A stretch of DNA of 64,000 bases from positions 186,001 to 250,000 of the forward strand of contig NZ_KB904539.1 in the NCBI RefSeq assembly GCF_000380085.1. The letters run 5' to 3'. The first letter of the stretch is position 1. Each line of letters begins with the position of its first letter. Both the position numbers and the translations under genes were made by a program. Source of the stretch: Streptococcus merionis DSM 19192 (lineage in GTDB: Bacteria; Bacillota; Bacilli; Lactobacillales; Streptococcaceae). A model generated the notes under the pieces. The model was given only the letters and a program-made list of their open reading frames with translations. It was not told the origin of the DNA and did no database searches. This document shows positions 35,172-49,948 of the stretch, piece by piece.

Positions 35172-35468
35172 CAAGAAAAGAAAGATGCCAGTACGCTATC
35201 AAAATCAAAAATAGGCGTAACGGTTGCCACAGCAGCCAATCTTTTGAAAGAGGCTGGGAAAAAAGCCAACCTCACCTCTCATATCACATCGCAGTGGTTG
35301 GGAGAAGACTTGTTGGCCATGCCAACTTAGTCTTACCCCTGCAAAGATCATTAGGTGCTTTAGCACCAATGAACCACTGCTGATTAGGCTCTAATACACG
35401 GATAATCCAGTTTAGAACCCTACTCAGCGGTTCGCTGTCTCCAATCGTTTGCTTACTAACTGAACACA

Positions 35469-35557
35469 GCCTAAAATGCTCGATAAAATGCGTGAGTTTC
35501 CTTGAGCCTTCAGACCCATCAGTCACTCCCTTATTTTCCATCGCATTTTTAAACGGC
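35469..35557 (+). repeat. Palindromic repeat family 1, short unit B1
   Basis: Nested stems: GCC/GGC outermost, ATGCG/CGCAT, GAGT/ACTC, and an inner hairpin that is decayed here (TGAGCC versus GACCCA). Nearly identical in layout to 40664-40753. It ends with a variant of the TTTGTATCTTA tag. Confidence 0.7.
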
Positions 35558-35581
35558 CTCATATCTTAACGAACTGAACAC

Positions 35582-35751
35582 GGCCTAAAAAGCTAGATGT
35601 CAGGGGATACTGTCTTATTACCTTGTCGTCGTAGACGTCTGGTTTTTCTTCGATTTCATCTGTGAAAAACCTAGTCGTCCTGACGGGGGTGCGTCAACGA
35701 AATCAAAGATTTCTGACTTACCGCCATTTTTCTACGCTTTTCATAATGGCC
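35582..35751 (+). repeat. Palindromic repeat family 1, long unit B2
   Basis: Bounded by GGCC/GGCC. Contains the 31-bp hairpin GGTTTTTC...GAAAAACC (35641-35671), which is GGATTTTC...GAAAATCC in the other two long copies. Followed by TGACTTACCGCC and TTTGTATCTT. Confidence 0.75.
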
Positions 35752-35810
35752 TTTGTATCTTGTAGTGCGCAACTCTTGGACAGCTATCGCATAGGTGGAA
35801 CATCTGGGAG

Positions 35811-39640: not shown

Positions 39641-40336
39641 ATGTTACAAGAAGTATTGAGGCAAGAGAAAAAATATATCATCACTATAGAAGATTACTAT
39701 CGTTTGTCACGCCAATTTGAACAATTTTTGCACCAAGATTCTCACAGCCAAGAGGACGGCTATTGGATCCGCTCGCTTTATTTTGATTCTTTAGAAGATG
39801 TGGATTGGCATGAAAAAGAAGATGGGGTAGCTCTCAGGCGGAAGCTCCGCCTAAGGACCTATAAAGGAAGCTCTTCTGCCAAGCTAGAAATGAAGCAAAA
39901 GCAAGGAGCTAATCAAAAGAAGCGTTCTTTGACGCTATCTCAATCCGAGGCAGAAGCCTTGATTGCTGGCCAATTCGGTGTGCTTTTGCAACATCCGACC
40001 CCTTTTGCAGCCGAGTGTTATGCCAGATTATCCGCGCATTGTTACCGCCCAAAGACTGTTATTGATTATCGGAGAAAAGCCTTTATGACTAAGGAAAATA
40101 ATATCCGAATAACATTCGATCACTCTATTTCGGTAACAGAAAGTTGTTTCGATCTTTTTTCGCCAACCCTGTTACAATATCCCGTCTTGGATGCTGGACT
40201 TGTGATCATGGAGGTAAAATATAACGGATTCTTGCTGTCCTATCTCAAAGAGTTAATCAATCAGGCTGATGCTAGTGAGTTAAGCGCGAGCAAATATTGT
40301 TTGGGAAGAGCAATCAGCAAGCACTATCACTTTTAA
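39641..40336 (+). CDS. VTC-domain protein (polyphosphate-polymerase-like, CYTH-type tunnel fold)
   Basis: A 231-aa soluble protein with the VTC/CYTH charged-tunnel motifs in order: RQEKKYII, IRSLYFDS, RRKLRLRTYKG, AKLEMKQKQG, VIDYRRKAF, RITFDHSI and VIMEVKYNGF. In yeast Vtc4 this domain makes polyphosphate. Bacterial family members sit beside DUF4956 and CotH genes and their reaction is not settled. The basic and acidic tunnel residues look intact, so it is probably active on a phosphate-containing substrate. First gene of the cluster; 560 bp of repeats separate it from DUF4956. Confidence 0.88.
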   Translation: MLQEVLRQEKKYIITIEDYYRLSRQFEQFLHQDSHSQEDGYWIRSLYFDSLEDVDWHEKEDGVALRRKLRLRTYKGSSSAKLEMKQKQGANQKKRSLTLSQSEAEALIAGQFGVLLQHPTPFAAECYARLSAHCYRPKTVIDYRRKAFMTKENNIRITFDHSISVTESCFDLFSPTLLQYPVLDAGLVIMEVKYNGFLLSYLKELINQADASELSASKYCLGRAISKHYHF

Positions 40337-40429
40337 AAAGAGCTATCAAACTAGGAGCTGTGCGGAGAAAGTAGGGTGCCAACAATGATGACATAGAGTA
40401 TCGAAGTTAAGGTTTTTATAAGTAACGGA

Positions 40430-40650
40430 TTTTTGCCTAGCCATATCGAAAATTTGACGGCTTTGTATCTTAGAAATAAATTTAGGCTAAAATGCTTGAT
40501 TTAGCTATGTATGACTGGGCTTTAGCCGTCTGGATTTTCTTCGATTTCATCTGTGAAAATCCTAGTCGTCCTGGTCGGGGGCGTCTACGTCCTCAAAGAT
40601 GACTGACTTACCGCCATTTTTCAACGCTTTTTTTACGGGCTTTGTATCTT
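40430..40650 (+). repeat. Palindromic repeat family 1, long unit C1
   Basis: Contains the 31-bp hairpin GGATTTTC...GAAAATCC (40532-40562), then GACTTACCGCC and ACGGGCTTTGTATCTTA. It is the long-unit type also seen at 35582 and, reversed, at 49634. It starts near a separate GGCTTTGTATCTTA tag (about 40461). Confidence 0.7.
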
Positions 40651-40663
40651 AAAACTGAACACA

Positions 40664-40753
40664 GGCTAAAATGCTCGGTAAAATGCGTGAGTTCCCTTGA
40701 GTCTTCGGACTCATCGGTCACTCCCTTATTTTCCATCGCATTTCTAGACGCCC
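40664..40753 (+). repeat. Palindromic repeat family 1, short unit C2
   Basis: Nested stems GGC/GCC, AAATGCG (40681-40687)/CGCATTT (40737-40743), GAGT/ACTC, and TGAGTC-TTCG-GACTCA (40698-40713), a UUCG-type tetraloop. Followed by TTTGTATCTTA and ACTGAACACG. Confidence 0.75.
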
Positions 40754-40777
40754 TTTGTATCTTAACCAACTGAACAC

Positions 40778-40868
40778 GCCCTAAAAAGCTAGATAAAATT
40801 CAAAAATTTCCTAGAGTCTACGGACTCGTCGTCAATTTTTTCATTTTTCAACGCTTTTCTTAACGGGC
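40778..40868 (+). repeat. Palindromic repeat family 1, short unit C3
   Basis: Nested stems GCCC (40778-40781)/GGGC (40865-40868), AAAAATT (40802-40808)/AATTTTT (40834-40840), and GAGTC-TACG-GACTC (40814-40827), a UACG-type tetraloop. It ends 29 bp before the DUF4956 start codon. Confidence 0.75.
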
Positions 40869-40897
40869 TTTGTATCTTACTTTATAAGGAGTATAAA

Positions 40898-41575
40898 ATG
40901 AGAGAAATTTTAAGAAATGTTCTAGAACAAAATGGAACATTAACAGTGCAAGAGATCATCATGCACTTGACTGTTGCAGCTTTGCTTAGCTTGGCTATTT
41001 ATGTGTCGTACGCTTACACTCATAGTGGTACAAGCTATAGTCAGAAATTCAATGTTTCACTAATGGTACTGACAGTGTTGACTGCGACGGTCATGACTGT
41101 TATCGGAAATAACATCGCCCTTTCATTAGGGATGGTCGGTGCTTTATCCGTTGTTCGTTTTCGGACAGCGATTAAAGATTCCAGAGACACGGTCTATATT
41201 TTTTGGACCATTGTTGTTGGGATATGTTGTGGCGTCGGAGATTACCATGTCGCTTCAACAGGGAGCGCCCTTATCTTTATAATCCTCTTGATTATGGGGA
41301 AAGTCAAAAATGAAAATCGTATGCTGCTTATTGTCCGTACGCTGCGCGATCAGGAAATGGCTGTGGAGTCACTGGTGTTCCAATACTTTGAAGGTAAGGT
41401 CGTTCAACGTGTCAAAAATACCAGTGAGGCGTCAGCTGAGATGATTTTTGAAATTTCTAGGAAAGATTATGATAAATACCATCAGGCGGACAACAATTTA
41501 ACAGACAAGTTGTACCAAATCGGTCACATGGACTATGTAAACATTGTCACCCAAAGCGATGAAATTAATGGCTAA
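40898..41575 (+). CDS. DUF4956 membrane protein
   Basis: A 225-aa protein with about four hydrophobic helices (about 22-42, 51-73, 80-100 and 112-132) and a soluble ferredoxin-like C-terminal half. The conserved LGMVGALSVVRFRTAIKDSRD segment in the membrane part is characteristic of DUF4956. Function unknown; the family occurs almost always beside VTC and CotH genes. The stop is 12 bp before the CotH gene, so the rest of the cluster is a tight operon. ATAAGGAG precedes the ATG. Confidence 0.88.
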   Translation: MREILRNVLEQNGTLTVQEIIMHLTVAALLSLAIYVSYAYTHSGTSYSQKFNVSLMVLTVLTATVMTVIGNNIALSLGMVGALSVVRFRTAIKDSRDTVYIFWTIVVGICCGVGDYHVASTGSALIFIILLIMGKVKNENRMLLIVRTLRDQEMAVESLVFQYFEGKVVQRVKNTSEASAEMIFEISRKDYDKYHQADNNLTDKLYQIGHMDYVNIVTQSDEING

Positions 41576-41587
41576 ACGTAAAAAGAT

Positions 41588-42997
41588 ATGAAACATAAAG
41601 TAATTTATCTGATCACATGCTTGACCCTTATTGTTGTGGGAGCGGTATTGGTGCGTTTTGAACCTAGACATCAGGATTTTCGAAAGCATCATCATCGTCA
41701 AAAGCCATTTCCACAGAGAAATGTTGCTGATATCACGACACACCTCCCAGTCATTGCTATTGAAACAGAGTCTCCTATTCCTTTGGTCCAAAGTTCAGGC
41801 TCTACGGTAGCCATCCAAGATAAGGTAGAGGGCAAGGTCAAGCTTTATGATACAAAGGCCTCCAAGCCCAGAGAGTCTAGCAAAGCGCTGATTGGTTATC
41901 GAGGTAATTCCTCTTGGCATTTTGATAAGAAATCTCTCAAACTTCATTTTGTGACTGATAAGGGCAAGGATCGCTCGGTTGCAGTAGCAGGAATGGCAGA
42001 GCATTCCGAGTGGGTCTTGCACGGCCCCTTTCTTGACCGTAGTTTATTAAGAAATTACATTGGTTATAATATTTCCGGTGAGATCATGGACTACGCTCCT
42101 AATGTGAGGTATTGCGAGCTGGTGGTAAATGGTGAGTATCAGGGACTTTATTTAGCGGTTGAAAATATCGAGCAAGGGAGCAACCGTATTCGTATTGAAA
42201 AAAGCGATAAACGCTCTCCTCAGACTTCCTACATTGTTGAGTGGGGTAGAAAACACAAGGCAAATAATCTCTTGGATAATTATGTCCAATCTATTCACCA
42301 AGCAGGTAAGTCAGGGTTAGATGTCAAGTATCCAGGTCCAAATCGCCTTACACCAGAACAAAAGCAATTTATTGAAAGAGACATTAGCCAGATAGAACGA
42401 ACTCTCTATTCGTACGATTTAAAGCAGTATCCTCAATATCTGGATCGAGAAGCTTTTGCGGATTATTTTATCATCAATGAATTTTTCAGAAATACAGATG
42501 CAGGGAAATTCTCGACTTATTTTTATAAGGATTTAAGAGATAAGATGAAGCCAGTTGTGTGGGATTTCAATAACGCTTTAGACAACCAAATGGACGTCAA
42601 TTACGACGCAGCTGGTTTCACCATGGTTGACGTTCCATGGTTCAATCAACTGCTTAAAGATGAGGCCTTTGTTAATCTTATTGTTCTGAAATATCGAAAA
42701 TTACGAGAATCAGTTTTTAGCACAGAATATTTGCATCGTTACATCGATGAGACAGTAGCTTTTCTAGGGCCAGCTATTGAGCGAAATTACGATAAATGGG
42801 GCTATGTTTTTAGATTGGAGCACCCTGACAGTCAAAATTACCTGATGCCCTATGAGCGAAATGTCACTAGTTACCAAGAATCCCTTGAGCAACTAAAAGA
42901 TTTTATCAGGCAGAGAGGGCGTTGGTTGGATAAACACATCGATACCCTCTACCAATATTCTTCTCCATCTAAAAACGTCAATACATTAGTAGAGTGA
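41588..42997 (+). CDS. CotH-family kinase-like protein, membrane anchored
   Basis: A 469-aa protein with an N-terminal signal anchor (about 5-22), so the domain faces outside. CotH features are RGNSSWHFDKKSLKLHF, RNYIGYNISGEIM, NGEYQGLYLAVENIE, INEFFRNTDAGKFSTYFYKD and KPVVWDFNNALDNQ (about 325-334, the Asp region corresponding to the metal-binding motif). CotH is a protein kinase that phosphorylates coat proteins in Bacillus. This bacterium does not form spores, so a surface protein or glycopolymer is the more likely substrate (inference). 10 bp before the next gene. Confidence 0.88.
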   Translation: MKHKVIYLITCLTLIVVGAVLVRFEPRHQDFRKHHHRQKPFPQRNVADITTHLPVIAIETESPIPLVQSSGSTVAIQDKVEGKVKLYDTKASKPRESSKALIGYRGNSSWHFDKKSLKLHFVTDKGKDRSVAVAGMAEHSEWVLHGPFLDRSLLRNYIGYNISGEIMDYAPNVRYCELVVNGEYQGLYLAVENIEQGSNRIRIEKSDKRSPQTSYIVEWGRKHKANNLLDNYVQSIHQAGKSGLDVKYPGPNRLTPEQKQFIERDISQIERTLYSYDLKQYPQYLDREAFADYFIINEFFRNTDAGKFSTYFYKDLRDKMKPVVWDFNNALDNQMDVNYDAAGFTMVDVPWFNQLLKDEAFVNLIVLKYRKLRESVFSTEYLHRYIDETVAFLGPAIERNYDKWGYVFRLEHPDSQNYLMPYERNVTSYQESLEQLKDFIRQRGRWLDKHIDTLYQYSSPSKNVNTLVE

Positions 42998-43007
42998 GGT
43001 TAGACTT

Positions 43008-45146
43008 TTGAAACGGTATTTGAGCTTTGTTGGCTTATTGACCCTATGTTTGATGCTGGGCTACTATTTTTATTATTTTGATGGAAGCCTTTATCTGTCA
43101 CACCAGAAAGATCAGGCCAACTTGAACATCAACTTCAAAACCCAGAATCGTCAAATCATACAAGTGAAAGATGGTCAAGACACTCCCTTTTTGGTGAAGG
43201 GGGTTGATCTAGAAAGTTCTTACCCTGGCTATCATCATAATGAATTTGCCATAGGCAAGAAAAGATATCAGGAATGGTTGGATCAAATTTCTGAGATGGG
43301 CGCTAACACGATTCGTGTTAAGACGCTTATGGATGTGGCTTTTTACGATGCCTTGCACGCTCACAATCAGAAGAATCCTAAGCATCCTCTTTACCTTATC
43401 CAAGGTGTTCGGATAGATGACTATCGCAATAACCAAGCTATTTCTGGTTCGGACAATCGTTATATTGGTCAACTTCTCAGAGATGCCCGGGCGGCTGTAG
43501 ATATCATTCATGGCCGCCGACAATTCTGGAACACCGACTTTGGGATTAGGAACTATACCAAGGATATCTCCAAATGGGTTTTGGGGTTTGTGGTAGGTGA
43601 GAATTGGAATAGTGGGATGATTGTTTATACCAATCATCAGGAGAATGCAAAGTCAGTAAAGGGCAACTATTTCCAGACGACTGATAAGGCCACTACTTTT
43701 GAGTCTTTATTAGTGAGTGTCATGGAGGATTTGGTGAGCTATGAAAGTGCTAAGTATCAGTGCCAGCACCTAGTTTCTTTTGCTAATTCTCCAGGGACAG
43801 ATCCGTTTGTCTATAGGGAAGCTTTTGAAGCACAAGCCCCTAAGTTTGCTCGCCTAAATGTTGAAAACATTAAAGCTACATCTGCCTTGAAATCAGGTGT
43901 ATTTGCGGCCTACAGTCTTTTGGACTGCCATCCAGAATTTTCTCAATATCTTGACAGTGGTCAATCTAGTATTTCTGAGGATTTGAAACGAAGTATTGAC
44001 GGACTACCTTTTATGGAAGCATATGTCAAATTACTGGCTGGCTTTCATCAGTTACCAGTCTTGATTACTGGTTATGGACATTCGACAGCTCGTGGAACAG
44101 ATTTGCATCGCGATGCCAACCAGCCGTTGACAATGAACGAGAGAGAACAGGGCGAGGCCTTGGTTAGAGATTTTATCATGTTTAAAGAGGCTGGACTAGC
44201 TGGTGCGACGATTCATGCTTGGCAGGATGATTGGAATGCTAGAAGTTGGAATGTTTCTTACGCAACTAACCGCCATGCGAGTTATCAGTGGGGCGATGTG
44301 CAAGTTCGAAACCAAGGCTTTGGTCTACTTACCTTTGATGAAGGGAAGCGACCTCATACCATTGATGGAAACTTAGATGAGTGGTCAAATAAACCTAATA
44401 TGAAGACCAAAGACGGAAATCTTTGGTTGGATTCGGATTCAAGGTATCTTTACATTGCGATACAAACAAAAGAAGCATCAAATGGAGATTACTTTATTCC
44501 GATTGATACCCATCCAGAGATAGGTAGTCGAACTTGGGAAAAGAATTCTCCTGTCTTAGACAGATTAGCTAATTTTATCCTTTCTTTTCGAGATGGAGAA
44601 GGCCATCTCTATGTCCAAGAACGCTATGACAGTGTTCGGAGTCATTACATGATGCAACTAGAAGGTGCTGACCCCCACATTGAGCCTCCGCGTAAAGATT
44701 CGTCACACTTTGTCCCGATTCGAATGGTGTTGAGAAATGACCGAATCTTTGAGGATTTGGAAAAGACTCCGCGAGAGGAGAAGTGGCTCCCAGCTTATGA
44801 CACAGGACAGCTGAAGCAAGGCTACGGTAAGCGTGGCAGTGCCTCCTTTGATTCTAGAGCTGACTATTATGTTAAGGGAACAACGATTGAGGCAAGGATT
44901 CCGTGGCAAATGCTTAATTTTTCCAATCCAGCCGAGGGCTTTATTCACGATGATTATTACCGACATTATGGGGTTGAAGATAAGAAGATTGATAAACTCT
45001 ATGTTGGTTTGGGACGATCACTACAACAGGGAACAGTCAAAATGAAACCCTACACTTTGAAGCAATGGCAGCGACCACAGGTTGTCCCAGTCTTGAAAGA
45101 GTCTTATGCTATGGTTAAAGAATTATGGACTAAAGAAGGAGATTAA
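43008..45146 (+). CDS. Membrane-anchored glycoside-hydrolase-like protein with a CBM9-like domain
   Basis: A 712-aa protein. An N-terminal signal anchor (about 5-26) precedes a (beta/alpha)8-type hydrolase domain of the GH2/GH5 kind (about 60-445; FLVKGVDLESSYPG, EMGANTIRVKTL, WVLGFVVGENWN, LITGYGHS, HAWQDDWNARSWN). A carbohydrate-binding, CBM9/DOMON-like region follows (about 455-700; HTIDGNLDEW). The catalytic acids cannot be fixed from one sequence. Starts with TTG-like weak context, but ATG... KRYLSFVG is the natural start; GAGGTTAG lies upstream. A hydrolase beside a processive synthase recalls the PgaB, BcsZ or PelA role in polymer trimming. Confidence 0.8.
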   Translation: MKRYLSFVGLLTLCLMLGYYFYYFDGSLYLSHQKDQANLNINFKTQNRQIIQVKDGQDTPFLVKGVDLESSYPGYHHNEFAIGKKRYQEWLDQISEMGANTIRVKTLMDVAFYDALHAHNQKNPKHPLYLIQGVRIDDYRNNQAISGSDNRYIGQLLRDARAAVDIIHGRRQFWNTDFGIRNYTKDISKWVLGFVVGENWNSGMIVYTNHQENAKSVKGNYFQTTDKATTFESLLVSVMEDLVSYESAKYQCQHLVSFANSPGTDPFVYREAFEAQAPKFARLNVENIKATSALKSGVFAAYSLLDCHPEFSQYLDSGQSSISEDLKRSIDGLPFMEAYVKLLAGFHQLPVLITGYGHSTARGTDLHRDANQPLTMNEREQGEALVRDFIMFKEAGLAGATIHAWQDDWNARSWNVSYATNRHASYQWGDVQVRNQGFGLLTFDEGKRPHTIDGNLDEWSNKPNMKTKDGNLWLDSDSRYLYIAIQTKEASNGDYFIPIDTHPEIGSRTWEKNSPVLDRLANFILSFRDGEGHLYVQERYDSVRSHYMMQLEGADPHIEPPRKDSSHFVPIRMVLRNDRIFEDLEKTPREEKWLPAYDTGQLKQGYGKRGSASFDSRADYYVKGTTIEARIPWQMLNFSNPAEGFIHDDYYRHYGVEDKKIDKLYVGLGRSLQQGTVKMKPYTLKQWQRPQVVPVLKESYAMVKELWTKEGD

Positions 45147-45147
45147 T

Positions 45148-45273
45148 ATGGTTTATATAGTATTGATGACTTATTGTATAGCTTGCTTGTCCATCCTTAT
45201 TTTTAATTTAGGGTACGCCTTGAAGCGTTACTGGAAGAAAAAACAACTGTCAATGAAGCTGGAACAAAAGTAG
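45148..45273 (+). CDS. Small single-pass membrane protein, 41 aa
   Basis: An ATG at 45148 with a strong GAAGGAG 6 nt upstream opens a 41-codon frame directly after the hydrolase stop (1 bp gap). The product starts MVYIVLMTYCIACLSIL and continues with a hydrophobic helix to about residue 25, then a very basic tail (KRYWKKKQL...KLEQK). Location, ribosome site and composition support a real gene; I recognise no family. It may be a small subunit of the synthase complex. Confidence 0.7.
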   Translation: MVYIVLMTYCIACLSILIFNLGYALKRYWKKKQLSMKLEQK

Positions 45274-45312
45274 CAATTTCTAGTCTGAACAGTTTGACGC
45301 AGTAGTTGTCGG

Positions 45313-45352
45313 ACTTGTAAAATCAGTGATAAATCAATTTTTTACAAGTTTT
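45313..45352 (+). terminator. Terminator-like hairpin between the small ORF and the GT2 gene
   Basis: ACTTGTAAAA pairs with TTTTACAAGT and is followed by TTT. It may reduce read-through into the glycosyltransferase. Confidence 0.55.
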
Positions 45353-45440
45353 GATAGCCCTTTAGGTTAGGACCACAAAATCAATTTGGGGAAATCACAA
45401 TTTTTTATACGTAATCTTCAACGGTTACATGCTTTTGCGG

Positions 45441-45472
45441 ATGGGCAAAGCCATCATGGCTGTTTGTCCCAT
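45441..45472 (+). promoter_or_regulatory. Stable hairpin in the GT2 leader
   Basis: ATGGGcAAaGCCAT-c-ATGGCtgTTtgtCCCAT forms an imperfect stem of about 14 bp, 35 bp before the GT2 start. It has no T tract. It may be a processing or control element; no promoter was clear between it and the preceding terminator. Confidence 0.4.
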
Positions 45473-45507
45473 TCCTATCAAGCAATGAAGGGGAGGAAGT
45501 TTTAGAT

Positions 45508-46914
45508 ATGGGATTGATGTTAGAGTTTCTAAAAATATCACAAAATATCTTTTTAGTTTATTTACTAGGTTATGCAAGTTTTTTATTATTATCGCTGGTC
45601 ATTGCAGGTGTTTATCTCCACGAGAAAAGTGAGCGTCGCCGTCAGCAGTCATCATCAGAAAATGCGGGTGAAGTAGGTGTTTCGATTATTATCCCTGCCT
45701 ATAACGAGGAAGTGACCATCGTAGATGCGGTGACATCACTCCTAAACCTTGATTACCAGTCTTACGAAATCATTGTTGTAGACGATGGTTCAGAGGATGC
45801 GACAGCTCGTCTTGTAAGGGAGAACTTTGAATTGGAGGAAGAGGACGTAACCATCAACCTTTTTATCCCTTGTCACCCATACCATCGTATTTCTAAACGA
45901 CAGTTTGGCCATGTCACGCTAACCTTGATTGAAAAGGAGAATGGTGGTAAAGGGGATGCCCTTAATTTAGGGGTTAATGCGGCTATTCACGACTATTTTT
46001 TGTGTATCGATGCCGATTCTATGCTACAGGCGGACTCCCTTAAGCAGATAACCAAACCGGTCCGACAAGATGCTACAACTATTGCAGTAGGCGGACTGGT
46101 TCAGGTATCTCAGGGAGTAAGACTTAGTAAGGGAAGTGTCAAGGATTATAAGCTGCCTTGGCAACCTCTCTGCTGTGCACAAGCCATTGAATACGATTGT
46201 TCATTTTTAGGGAGCAGGATTCTGCTGGATTACTTTAAGGCAAACGCCATTATTTCCGGAGCTTTTGGTCTCTTTCACAAGGAAATGGTCCAAGCAGTGG
46301 GTGGATACGACTGTGGGACTTTGGGAGAGGATATGGAGCTAGTGATGAAGTTACACTATTTCTGTCGAAATAACAAAATCCCCTATCAAATTTGTTATGA
46401 AACAGACGCCGTTTGTTGGAGCCAAGCACCTAGCCATTTAGGTGATTTATGTCAGCAGAGAAGACGTTGGTTCTTTGGGCTGTACCAGTGCTTGAAAAAA
46501 TACCATCGCATGTTTTTGAATCCTCGTTTTGGAGCCTTAGGATTCCTGACCTTTCCTTATTATTTTTTATTTGAATTCCTGTGTCCATTTCTGGAAGTAT
46601 TTGGAATTTCCTTAATTCTCCTCTCTTTTTATTTTCATCAGTCTAATTGGTCATTTTTGCTGTCCCTATTCGTCTTGTATATTGTCTATTGTAGTCTACT
46701 GACTATGGCATCCTTCTTGCAGAGGGTTTATGCACAGCGTCTCTTCATTCGGGGGAATGATGTGTTAAAGGCTATCTATACCGCCTTTTTCCGTTATATG
46801 GTTCTTCACTGGATTATCAGTTTTATGCAGGTGACAAGCTTTATCGGGTACAAACATAAGAAAATGAGGTGGGGAGAAATCAAGCGTGACAAGGTTGAGA
46901 AGGTATCTCCCTAA
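45508..46914 (+). CDS. Processive family-2 glycosyltransferase (polysaccharide synthase)
   Basis: A 468-aa integral membrane synthase of the PgaC/IcaA/hyaluronan-synthase type. It has one N-terminal helix (about 11-35), a GT-A domain with SIIIPAYNEE, VVDDGS (about 91-96), NGGKGDALNLG, CIDADS (about 165-170), GEDMEL (about 273) and the processivity motif QQRRRW (316-321), then three or four C-terminal helices forming the export channel. No PilZ domain. The polymer is not readable from sequence. GGGGAGG lies before the ATG. It closes the accessory cluster. Confidence 0.88.
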   Translation: MGLMLEFLKISQNIFLVYLLGYASFLLLSLVIAGVYLHEKSERRRQQSSSENAGEVGVSIIIPAYNEEVTIVDAVTSLLNLDYQSYEIIVVDDGSEDATARLVRENFELEEEDVTINLFIPCHPYHRISKRQFGHVTLTLIEKENGGKGDALNLGVNAAIHDYFLCIDADSMLQADSLKQITKPVRQDATTIAVGGLVQVSQGVRLSKGSVKDYKLPWQPLCCAQAIEYDCSFLGSRILLDYFKANAIISGAFGLFHKEMVQAVGGYDCGTLGEDMELVMKLHYFCRNNKIPYQICYETDAVCWSQAPSHLGDLCQQRRRWFFGLYQCLKKYHRMFLNPRFGALGFLTFPYYFLFEFLCPFLEVFGISLILLSFYFHQSNWSFLLSLFVLYIVYCSLLTMASFLQRVYAQRLFIRGNDVLKAIYTAFFRYMVLHWIISFMQVTSFIGYKHKKMRWGEIKRDKVEKVSP

Positions 46915-49633: not shown

Positions 49634-49948
49634 GGCCGTTAAGAAAAGCGTAGAAAAATGGCGGTAAGTCAGGGAGTGGGAAAGAACTCAGCAATCAAAA
49701 AAAGAGTTCGTTTTCCCACCCCCGCACAGTTGATTAGGTCGGATTTGGAGTGTAAAACACGAACAAATCCGCCAATCAACCACTGCGCTGAGATGTTGAC
49801 GCAAACTATGAGAGGTGTGATTGGACTTTTTGCCCAGCCTCGTTGACGCACCCCGGCCATGACGACTAGGATTTTCGCAGATGAAATTGATGAAAATCCA
49901 GACGTCTACGGCCCAAATCAGACACGACAAAATTTAGCTTTTTAGGCC
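49634..49948 (-). repeat. Palindromic repeat family 1, long unit D2 (reversed), interrupted by a family 2 element
   Basis: Bounded by GGCC (49634-49637) and GGCC (49945-49948). The GGATTTTC...GAAAATCC hairpin is at 49869-49899. Compared with unit B2, about 170 bp are inserted between GGTAAGTCAG and GTTGACGCACCCC (about 49673-49843). The insert is the GGGAGTGGGA element. Confidence 0.75.
49675..49843 (+). repeat. Palindromic repeat family 2 (GGGAGTGGGA element), copy nested in unit D2
   Basis: First stem GTGGGAAA/TTTCCCAC with inner GAACTC/GAGTTC. Second stem GTTGATT/AATCAAC with inner CGGATTT/AAATCCG and GTG/CAC. Ends with the GAGAGGTG...CCCAGCCTC block also seen reversed near 35230-35320. 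Confidence 0.65.

What the first reader, a model, noticed from the sequence alone, without database searches (positions are those of the whole stretch)
39641..46914. VTC-DUF4956-CotH-glycosidase-small ORF-GT2 accessory cluster: probable surface glycopolymer or phosphorylation system
Six co-directed genes combine a polyphosphate-polymerase-like VTC domain, a DUF4956 membrane protein, an external CotH-type kinase, a membrane-anchored glycosidase-like protein with a CBM9-like domain, a 41-aa membrane peptide and a processive GT2 synthase with QQRRRW. VTC/DUF4956/CotH association is recurrent in Gram-positives, but its role is not established to my knowledge. Adding a synthase and a hydrolase suggests a synthase-dependent polysaccharide that is trimmed outside and possibly phosphorylated by the CotH/VTC pair. 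The cluster is bounded by terminators and repeats, as for an acquired or accessory block.
Basis: partly seen in the sequence, partly recalled or inferred. Interest (0 to 1): 0.72.

Follow-up and report, generated by a model that had tools for sequence, protein, structure and literature searches.

The report
Surface sugar-polymer operon with phosphate genes
A streptococcus carries its lineage's version of a widespread but unnamed gene set that probably makes and secretes a sugar polymer with the help of phosphate-handling proteins, and in streptococci the set's sugar-cutting enzyme has lost its cutting residues.

Summary
The six genes are real and form one unit. VTC-DUF4956-CotH-glycosidase-like-(membrane protein)-GT2 keeps its order in 80 of 80 fetched relatives; with enough flanking DNA, 59 of 61 hold all five main genes. 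It is a synthase-dependent exopolysaccharide system. It is not Pel: no PelG match in the genome.

New: (1) the 41-aa ORF is the anchor left from a ~370-aa HEAT-repeat protein present in 70 of 72 relatives. (2) The glycosidase-like protein is a GH-A barrel nearest GH157, but all six streptococcal copies lack both expected catalytic glutamates, so trimming outside is unlikely here. (3) Site residues of synthase, kinase and VTC are invariant in the aligned members. (4) VTC/DUF4956/CotH is known as a streptococcal Pel accessory set; a 2025 paper did not find it outside Pel (PMC12345266). Here it is, in another order. (5) By published order and sizes, Clostridium perfringens NELoc-2 looks like the same operon. 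(6) The trio occurs with or without a downstream EAL/GGDEF gene, so it is no simple c-di-GMP substitute.

The sugar, and what the phosphate trio does, remain unknown.

The parts
39641..40336 (+). VTC-domain protein (231 aa), polyphosphate-polymerase-like
   Evidence: PF09359 148 bits; R70, R72, K85, R145, E191, K193, K218 invariant in 30 aligned members; profile aligns with yeast Vtc4 3g3q, E 4.6e-4
40453..40891 (.). dispersed repeat element lying between VTC and DUF4956; not a part of the system
   Evidence: at least 70 matching places in the genome, the query included, for query 40340-40895
40898..41575 (+). DUF4956 membrane protein (225 aa), with a sub-threshold MgtC match
   Evidence: PF16316 52 bits; MgtC 22.1 bits against cut-off 31.4
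41588..42997 (+). CotH-type kinase-like protein (469 aa), probably outside the membrane
   Evidence: PF08757 236 bits; K114, D304, D326 invariant in 28 members; aligns with B. cereus CotH 5jd9
43008..45146 (+). membrane-anchored GH-A-fold protein (712 aa) lacking both expected catalytic Glu (N199, G355): probable pseudo-glycosidase
   Evidence: model pLDDT 86.6; LaGH157 Z 22.1, 2.8 A over 311 residues; residue table; LaGH157 E224 column
45148..45273 (+). 41-aa membrane ORF: probable remnant N-terminal anchor of the HEAT-repeat subunit
   Evidence: the 7 small ORFs at this place in the other streptococcal loci (5 distinct genomes) rank first among 1742 ORFs (E 3e-9 to 2e-7); the window's own ranks 8th with E 0.02, the next, unrelated ORF has E 0.06
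45508..46914 (+). processive membrane GT2 synthase (468 aa)
   Evidence: PF00535 90 bits; DDG, DAD, GED and QxxRW residues invariant in 30 members; model matches hyaluronan synthase Z 27.9 and cellulose synthase Z 24.3

Best explanation
This is the streptococcal form of a widespread, so far unnamed synthase-dependent exopolysaccharide operon. Shown by sequence: fixed gene order across Bacillota and Actinomycetota, an intact GT2 synthase, and conserved site residues in VTC and CotH. In streptococci the hydrolase has lost its expected catalytic pair, the HEAT subunit is cut back to its membrane anchor, and this genome has no GGDEF match. Inferred: the GT2 protein polymerises a sugar from a nucleotide donor and pushes the chain through its own membrane channel. 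DUF4956 with VTC forms a membrane phosphate/polyphosphate unit, and CotH outside the membrane transfers phosphate to the growing polymer or to a protein of the secretion complex. The GH-A protein, tethered beside the exit, now holds or guides the glycan instead of cutting it. The 41-aa peptide keeps the membrane contact once made by the HEAT subunit. The product would be an uncut surface or matrix polymer.
For: The genes found on the strand of the glycosidase-like gene are in the same order in 80 of 80 loci, and 59 of 61 loci with full context have all five main genes. Identity-based distances of the five proteins correlate pairwise over 17-29 shared loci, r 0.43-0.78, 0 of 500 permutations as high in each of 10 pairs. 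The five other streptococcal loci have VTC-DUF4956-CotH-GH-like in this order with GT2 next in four; in the fifth (L013/L018) only a 52-codon GT2 start is readable beside a transposase-like ORF at a contig end. GT2 catalytic residues invariant in 30; CotH K114/D304/D326 in 28; VTC residues in 30. GT2 model Z 24-28 to cellulose and hyaluronan synthases. Glu199 and Glu355 both absent in 6 of 6 streptococci. Streptococcal clade 100/99, Filifactor as sister 100/99. Among 247 sampled streptococcal genomes, 18 have CotH: 6 with this operon, 11 with PelG within about 2 kb, 1 with a degraded remnant of this operon; none has both the GH-like gene and PelG. Deleting the Pel counterparts of DUF4956 and CotH changes polymer amount and aggregation in S. 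intermedius (PMC12345266 section 20).
Against: No product has been observed. The sugar donor is unknown: PgaC/IcaA is the best NCBIfam model but at 140 bits against a cut-off of 422. In S. intermedius Pel is still made without any of the four accessory genes, and no change is reported for the VTC deletion, which weakens a strict VTC-feeds-CotH chain. In this genome a 561-bp gap with a repeat separates VTC from DUF4956 and 234 bp precede GT2, so co-transcription is unproven. The profiles used were built from the same loci. Three of six streptococcal copies have Asp at 199, which might still act as an acid; other acids (E286, D407) are invariant in all 60 rows.
Confidence: 0.55

Rival explanations
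1. The VTC/DUF4956/CotH trio is purely regulatory: CotH phosphorylates a protein of the synthase complex and replaces c-di-GMP control, as suggested for streptococcal Pel.
For: The suggestion is printed in PMC7112168 (passages). This genome has no GGDEF match. S. intermedius DUF4956 and CotH deletions alter the amount of Pel without abolishing it.
Against: The trio is present together with the EAL/GGDEF gene in 28 of the 29 EAL-bearing loci with full context, and in 21 of 21 without it, so it is not a replacement for that gene. Regulation in addition to c-di-GMP stays possible.
Confidence: 0.25
2. In this strain the operon is a decaying, non-functional leftover.
For: The hydrolase has lost its expected catalytic residues, the HEAT subunit is truncated, a repeat sits between VTC and DUF4956, another genome keeps only a broken VTC-DUF4956-CotH remnant (L146), one copy is frameshifted near the end of the GH-like gene, and in one species only the start of GT2 is readable before a transposase-like ORF and the contig end.
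Against: All six ORFs are open here, and GT2, CotH and VTC keep their site residues. The hydrolase change and the short peptide are shared by six streptococci whose GH-like proteins are only 48-49% identical to the window's, so they are old and have been kept.
Confidence: 0.15
3. It is an already named system: Pel, PNAG (Ica/Pga) or bacterial cellulose.
For: It shares a trio with Pel and the GT2 fold with cellulose and hyaluronan synthases; PgaC is the best NCBIfam match.
Against: No PelG match in the genome and none in the 80 loci with a profile of 13 streptococcal PelG. PgaC 140 bits against cut-off 422 and CelA 32.6 against 699. No PilZ and no deacetylase domain among the Pfam hits of the cluster at E<=0.1.
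Confidence: 0.05

Closest known systems
Streptococcal/clostridial Pel locus with CotH, VTC (polyphosphate polymerase), DUF4956 and DUF4832 accessory genes (PMC7112168, PMC12345266; passages)
   Same: Same three phosphate-linked protein types beside a polymer synthase and a hydrolase gene.
   Different: The synthase is GT2, with no PelG. In the three Pel loci I fetched, the order is PelG, CotH (placed by its PF08757 match), VTC, DUF4956. VTC and DUF4956 there are about 33-36% identical to the window's, against 60-75% among the GT2-type streptococcal loci. My GT2-type CotH profile did not recognise the Pel CotH at E 1e-3.
NELoc-2 of Clostridium perfringens (PMC2879425, Table 4 seen in passages)
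   Same: VTC 230-232 aa, 222-226 aa membrane protein, CotH 497, hypothetical 685, HEAT 377, GT2 466, in this order: the sizes and order of the present operon.
   Different: Has a resolvase and a second VTC/membrane-protein pair. The 222-226 aa genes are called tubulin/FtsZ there; by size and place I read them as DUF4956. Sequences were not compared here.
Glycoside hydrolase family 157 (LaGH157)
   Same: Closest solved fold of the 712-aa protein, Z 22.1, 2.8 A over 311 residues; GH2 beta-glucuronidases follow at Z 18.7-20.8 in the 50 rows shown.
   Different: 15% identity; the streptococcal proteins lack the E224-equivalent.
Hyaluronan, cellulose and PNAG synthases (processive GT2)
   Same: Fold (hyaluronan, cellulose) and DDG, DAD, GED, QxxRW residues.
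   Different: None of the equivalog cut-offs shown is reached. The best single structural match by Z is a mannosyltransferase, PcManGT, Z 30.4.

Membership tests
VTC-DUF4956-CotH-GH-like-(HEAT)-GT2 operon (unnamed) | the five main genes in fixed order on one strand | tested here: met
   window genes; 80 of 80 relatives keep the order of the genes found
VTC-DUF4956-CotH-GH-like-(HEAT)-GT2 operon (unnamed) | full-length HEAT-repeat membrane protein | tested here: not met
   only a 41-aa ORF in the window; HEAT protein found in 70 of 72 relatives with >=3 kb downstream
Gram-positive Pel system | PelG present | tested here: not met
   no PF16933 match in the genome at E<=0.001
PNAG synthase (PgaC/IcaA) | equivalog score above cut-off | tested here: not met
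   140 bits against 422.3
Bacterial cellulose synthase (BcsA/CelA) | equivalog score above cut-off | tested here: not met
   32.6 bits against 699.1
CotH kinase family | PF08757 match and conserved ATP/metal-site residues | tested here: met
   236 bits; K114, D304, D326 invariant in 28 of 28, lined up with 5jd9; their catalytic role is recalled
CotH kinase family | protein or glycan kinase activity | not testable with these tools
   needs an enzyme assay
VTC polyphosphate polymerase | VTC domain with basic tunnel residues | tested here: met
   148 bits; invariant residues; alignment to Vtc4, which covers profile positions 4-170 only; their role in Vtc4 is recalled
VTC polyphosphate polymerase | makes polyphosphate from ATP | not testable with these tools
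   needs an enzyme assay
GH157 / clan GH-A glycosidase | GH-A barrel fold | tested here: met
   LaGH157 Z 22.1
GH157 / clan GH-A glycosidase | two catalytic Glu after barrel strands 4 and 7 | tested here: not met
   N199 and G355 in the window; Glu in 48 and 51 of 60 aligned members
NELoc-2 operon | same genes by sequence | not tested
   only the published order and sizes were compared

The most novel reading that the evidence does not exclude
VTC and DUF4956 together make polyphosphate and pass it across the membrane, and CotH outside uses it, in place of ATP, to phosphorylate the newly exported polysaccharide. This would be a general phosphate-donor module that two unrelated polymer synthases, Pel and the GT2 type, have each acquired.
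Probability: 0.13. Interest if true: 0.87.

Novelty: new variant of a known kind. Interest (0 to 1): 0.62.

Why it matters
It gives an identity to a gene set whose glycosidase-like gene is found in 17 of 299 genomes sampled from the window's phylum, the own genome included (the neighbours of the other 16 were not looked at). It links that set to the unexplained Pel accessory genes. It offers a reading for NELoc-2, a locus associated with poultry necrotic enteritis whose genes were read piecemeal as plasmid-segregation tubulins and a chitin synthase. The trio turns up with two different synthases, which makes its role directly testable: the common step must be something both need.

Tried and rejected
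Pel membership: rejected (no PelG). Romboutsia mixed-linkage glucan synthase and clostridial Ccs cellulose operons as the same system: the main texts of PMC10374906 and PMC7710045 have no occurrence of CotH or VTC; their sequences were not compared. A published description of this operon: searches of the open-licence PMC library (some lists capped: 15 of 24 shown, 15 of 213, 20 of 494). Among the papers I opened, only the two Pel papers and the C. perfringens NELoc papers bear on these genes together. Two other papers naming DUF4956 were seen only in the listing. Subscription papers and preprints were not covered. Opened by word search with nothing of use: PMC11658790, PMC5817204, PMC8250860, PMC10086821, PMC12710308.

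Single-sequence PDB search with VTC: no hit; the profile found Vtc4. GH-like alignment A1 against PDB: no hit; the deeper A2 found GH157. Plasmid carriage: only 3 distant plasmid records, 25-31% identity. Empty insertion site: in four relatives the DNA upstream of pepQ differs from the window (a uvrA-like gene in L148; a uvrA-like gene plus a 154-aa ORF in L149; a HAD-like gene in L147 and L150; labels by reading), so no clean empty site was defined. The sugar made by GT2 could not be named from structure. 'Tunnel', 'ATP lysine' and 'catalytic Asp' labels for VTC and CotH residues, and the strand numbers of the barrel, are recalled or my own reading.

Selection of rows: one search kept the best 80 of 163 relatives. 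Of 77 GH-like ORFs in those loci, 65 were 691-769 aa; A2 uses 59 of these plus the window (L076, L079, L084, L091, L092 and L094 left out for brevity). A3 uses 30 of 64, A4 28 of 68, A5 30 of 44 and A6 22 of 51 listed sequences. In one search the HEAT profile was built from 66 proteins taken from these same loci by position, the EAL profile from 5, and the others from A2-A6, so its counts are partly self-referential. Only hits on the strand of the GH-like gene within 9.5 kb were counted.
Full report
What is there. The six ORFs exist as described and carry VTC, DUF4956, CotH and GT2 domains. The 712-aa and 41-aa proteins match no Pfam family at E<=0.1. The terminator scan lists more sites than shuffles give (13 against 5.8) but no convincing boundary.

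Is it a unit? The glycosidase-like protein was used as the probe. In the genus, 6 of 247 sampled genomes have it, the own genome included. The five others have VTC, DUF4956, CotH and the GH-like gene in the same order, with GT2 next in four; in L013/L018 only a 52-codon GT2 start is readable beside a transposase-like ORF at a contig end. Flanking genes differ, by reading. In named genomes, 163 relatives were found and the best 80 kept: Streptococcus agalactiae ATCC 13813, S. thoraltensis, a Filifactor alocis MAG, Paenibacillus, Blautia, Eisenbergiella, Anaerotignum, Collinsella, Eggerthellaceae and many MAGs, one of them labelled Tenericutes. A six-frame profile scan of all 80 gave: upstream context >=3.5 kb in 67 loci, with VTC in 66, DUF4956 in 67 and CotH in 67; downstream >=3 kb in 72, with HEAT protein in 70 and GT2 in 71; both sides in 61, with all five main genes in 59. 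The order of the genes found was never broken (80 of 80). Exceptions among loci with context: L016 (S. agalactiae) lacks HEAT, L082 lacks HEAT and GT2, L087 lacks VTC. Identity-based distances of the five proteins correlate (10 pairs, 17-29 loci each, r 0.43 to 0.78; 0 of 500 permutations as high). In a sample of the window's phylum, 17 of 299 genomes have the glycosidase-like gene at E<=1e-30.

The 41-aa ORF. Outside streptococci this place is held by a ~370-aa protein with an N-terminal hydrophobic segment and HEAT repeats (Pfam HEAT_2 42 bits in L026). A 37-column profile of that segment, run on 1742 ORFs of the window and seven streptococcal loci (two genomes are there twice), ranks the seven small ORFs at this place first (E 3e-9 to 2e-7, five distinct genomes). 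The window's own comes eighth with E 0.02, and the next, unrelated ORF has E 0.06. So the peptide is probably what remains of a subunit; the window's copy alone would be weak evidence and rests on place and on the other five. The Filifactor protein (sister in the tree) is 301 aa and has no Pfam HEAT match at E<=0.01.

The glycosidase-like protein. AlphaFold model pLDDT 86.6. Best solved match GH157 from Labilibaculum antarcticum, Z 22.1, 2.8 A over 311 residues, then GH2 beta-glucuronidases at Z about 19-21. By counting in the printed profile alignment, LaGH157 E224, the residue mutated in entry 9g4n, falls on window G355. In A2 that column is Glu in 51 of 60, and column 199, after the strand 191-196, is Glu in 48 of 60. 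All six streptococcal copies have N, Q or D at 199 and G or S at 355. Filifactor also lacks both; three Lachnospiraceae lack only Glu355. These ten rows form one side of the midpoint-rooted tree (100/99), the streptococci one clade (100/99). Loss is not unique to them: L082 lacks both, L047 lacks Glu355 and seven further rows (L020, L022, L028, L063, L067, L074, L077) lack Glu199. Other acids (E286, D407) are invariant and Asp at 199 might serve, so loss of activity is an inference that rests mainly on position 355.

The parts that stay intact. GT2: D93, D168, D170, E274, D275, Q317, R318, R320 and W321 invariant in 30. Its model matches PcManGT Z 30.4, hyaluronan synthase 27.9 and cellulose synthase 24.3. 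CotH: K114, D304, D326 invariant in 28. VTC: R70, R72, K85, R145, E191, K193, K218 invariant in 30, with a profile match to yeast Vtc4 (E 4.6e-4).

c-di-GMP. In 31 of 56 loci with >=5.5 kb downstream, a gene matching a profile of five EAL/GGDEF proteins lies on the same strand downstream of GT2. The example in L026 has EAL 202 bits, GGDEF 46 bits and a sub-threshold SBP_bac_3 match. Among 50 loci with full context, the trio is present in 28 of 29 with that gene and in 21 of 21 without. The window genome has no GGDEF match. The trio therefore does not simply replace c-di-GMP, an idea raised for Pel in PMC7112168 (passages).

Relation to Pel. The trio is published as Pel accessory genes (PMC7112168, passages; PMC12345266, passages and section 20). 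In S. intermedius, Pel is still made without any of the four accessory genes. Deletion of the DUF4956 or CotH gene changed aggregation and Pel amount; no change is reported for the VTC gene, which counts against a strict VTC-to-CotH chain. [quoted passage not shown] Here the three are together outside Pel, though in another order. Among 247 sampled streptococcal genomes, 18 have CotH: 11 with PelG within about 2 kb, 6 with the GT2 operon and 1 (G090) with a degraded VTC-DUF4956-CotH remnant, 65-72% identical to the window genes over its main pieces. No genome has both the GH-like gene and PelG. Three of the 14 PelG genomes have no CotH match (G110, G129, G232), and PelG is broken in one (G171).

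Relation to NELoc-2. Table 4 of PMC2879425 (seen in passages) lists VTC, a 222-226 aa membrane protein called tubulin/FtsZ, CotH 497, hypothetical 685, HEAT 377 and GT2 466, with a resolvase and a second VTC/membrane pair. PMC11677781 (passages) also reports CotH, HEAT, glycosyltransferase and a polysaccharide deacetylase there. PMC5964661 and PMC5504799 (passages) associate the locus with necrotic enteritis but also find it in other strains, and PMC4983038 (passages) reports lower transcripts of its first VTC and the gene after it in vivo, so this says nothing about virulence by itself.

Verdict. A new variant of the synthase-dependent exopolysaccharide kind. The operon identity is well supported; the product, the target of the kinase and the role of polyphosphate are open.

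Noticed in passing
window 40453-40891; also 35458-35598 and 35632-35761: A dispersed repeat family with at least 70 matching places in the genome for one 556-base query; it interrupts the VTC-DUF4956 junction here. ORF translations at 49688-49930 look similar but that place is not among the listed matches.
   Followed up: partly
L015 5356-8156 (G000:C1 about 224.4-227.2 kb): A second, diverged VTC-DUF4956 pair (27% and 33% identity) beside a 398-aa lipoprotein-like ORF; the genome's only CotH match is elsewhere.
   Followed up: partly
L146 9403-12267: A degraded VTC-DUF4956-CotH remnant (VTC N-terminus not in the open frame, CotH split over two ORFs) without the glycosidase-like gene or GT2.
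   Followed up: partly
L071, L028 downstream of GT2: A DivIVA-like coiled-coil protein (147 aa in L028, PF05103 41 bits; a similar 167-aa ORF in L071 by reading) sits between GT2 and the EAL/GGDEF gene, hinting at polar placement of the complex.
   Followed up: no
L026 15659-16564, L032 5170-6081, L055 5200-6108: A ~300-aa exported or lipoprotein-like protein next to the operon in several species, with no clear family (Pfam run on two of the three).
   Followed up: no
L012 and L016: Runs of N in the S. agalactiae locus, one reaching into GT2, so the C-terminal part of that gene cannot be read.
   Followed up: no
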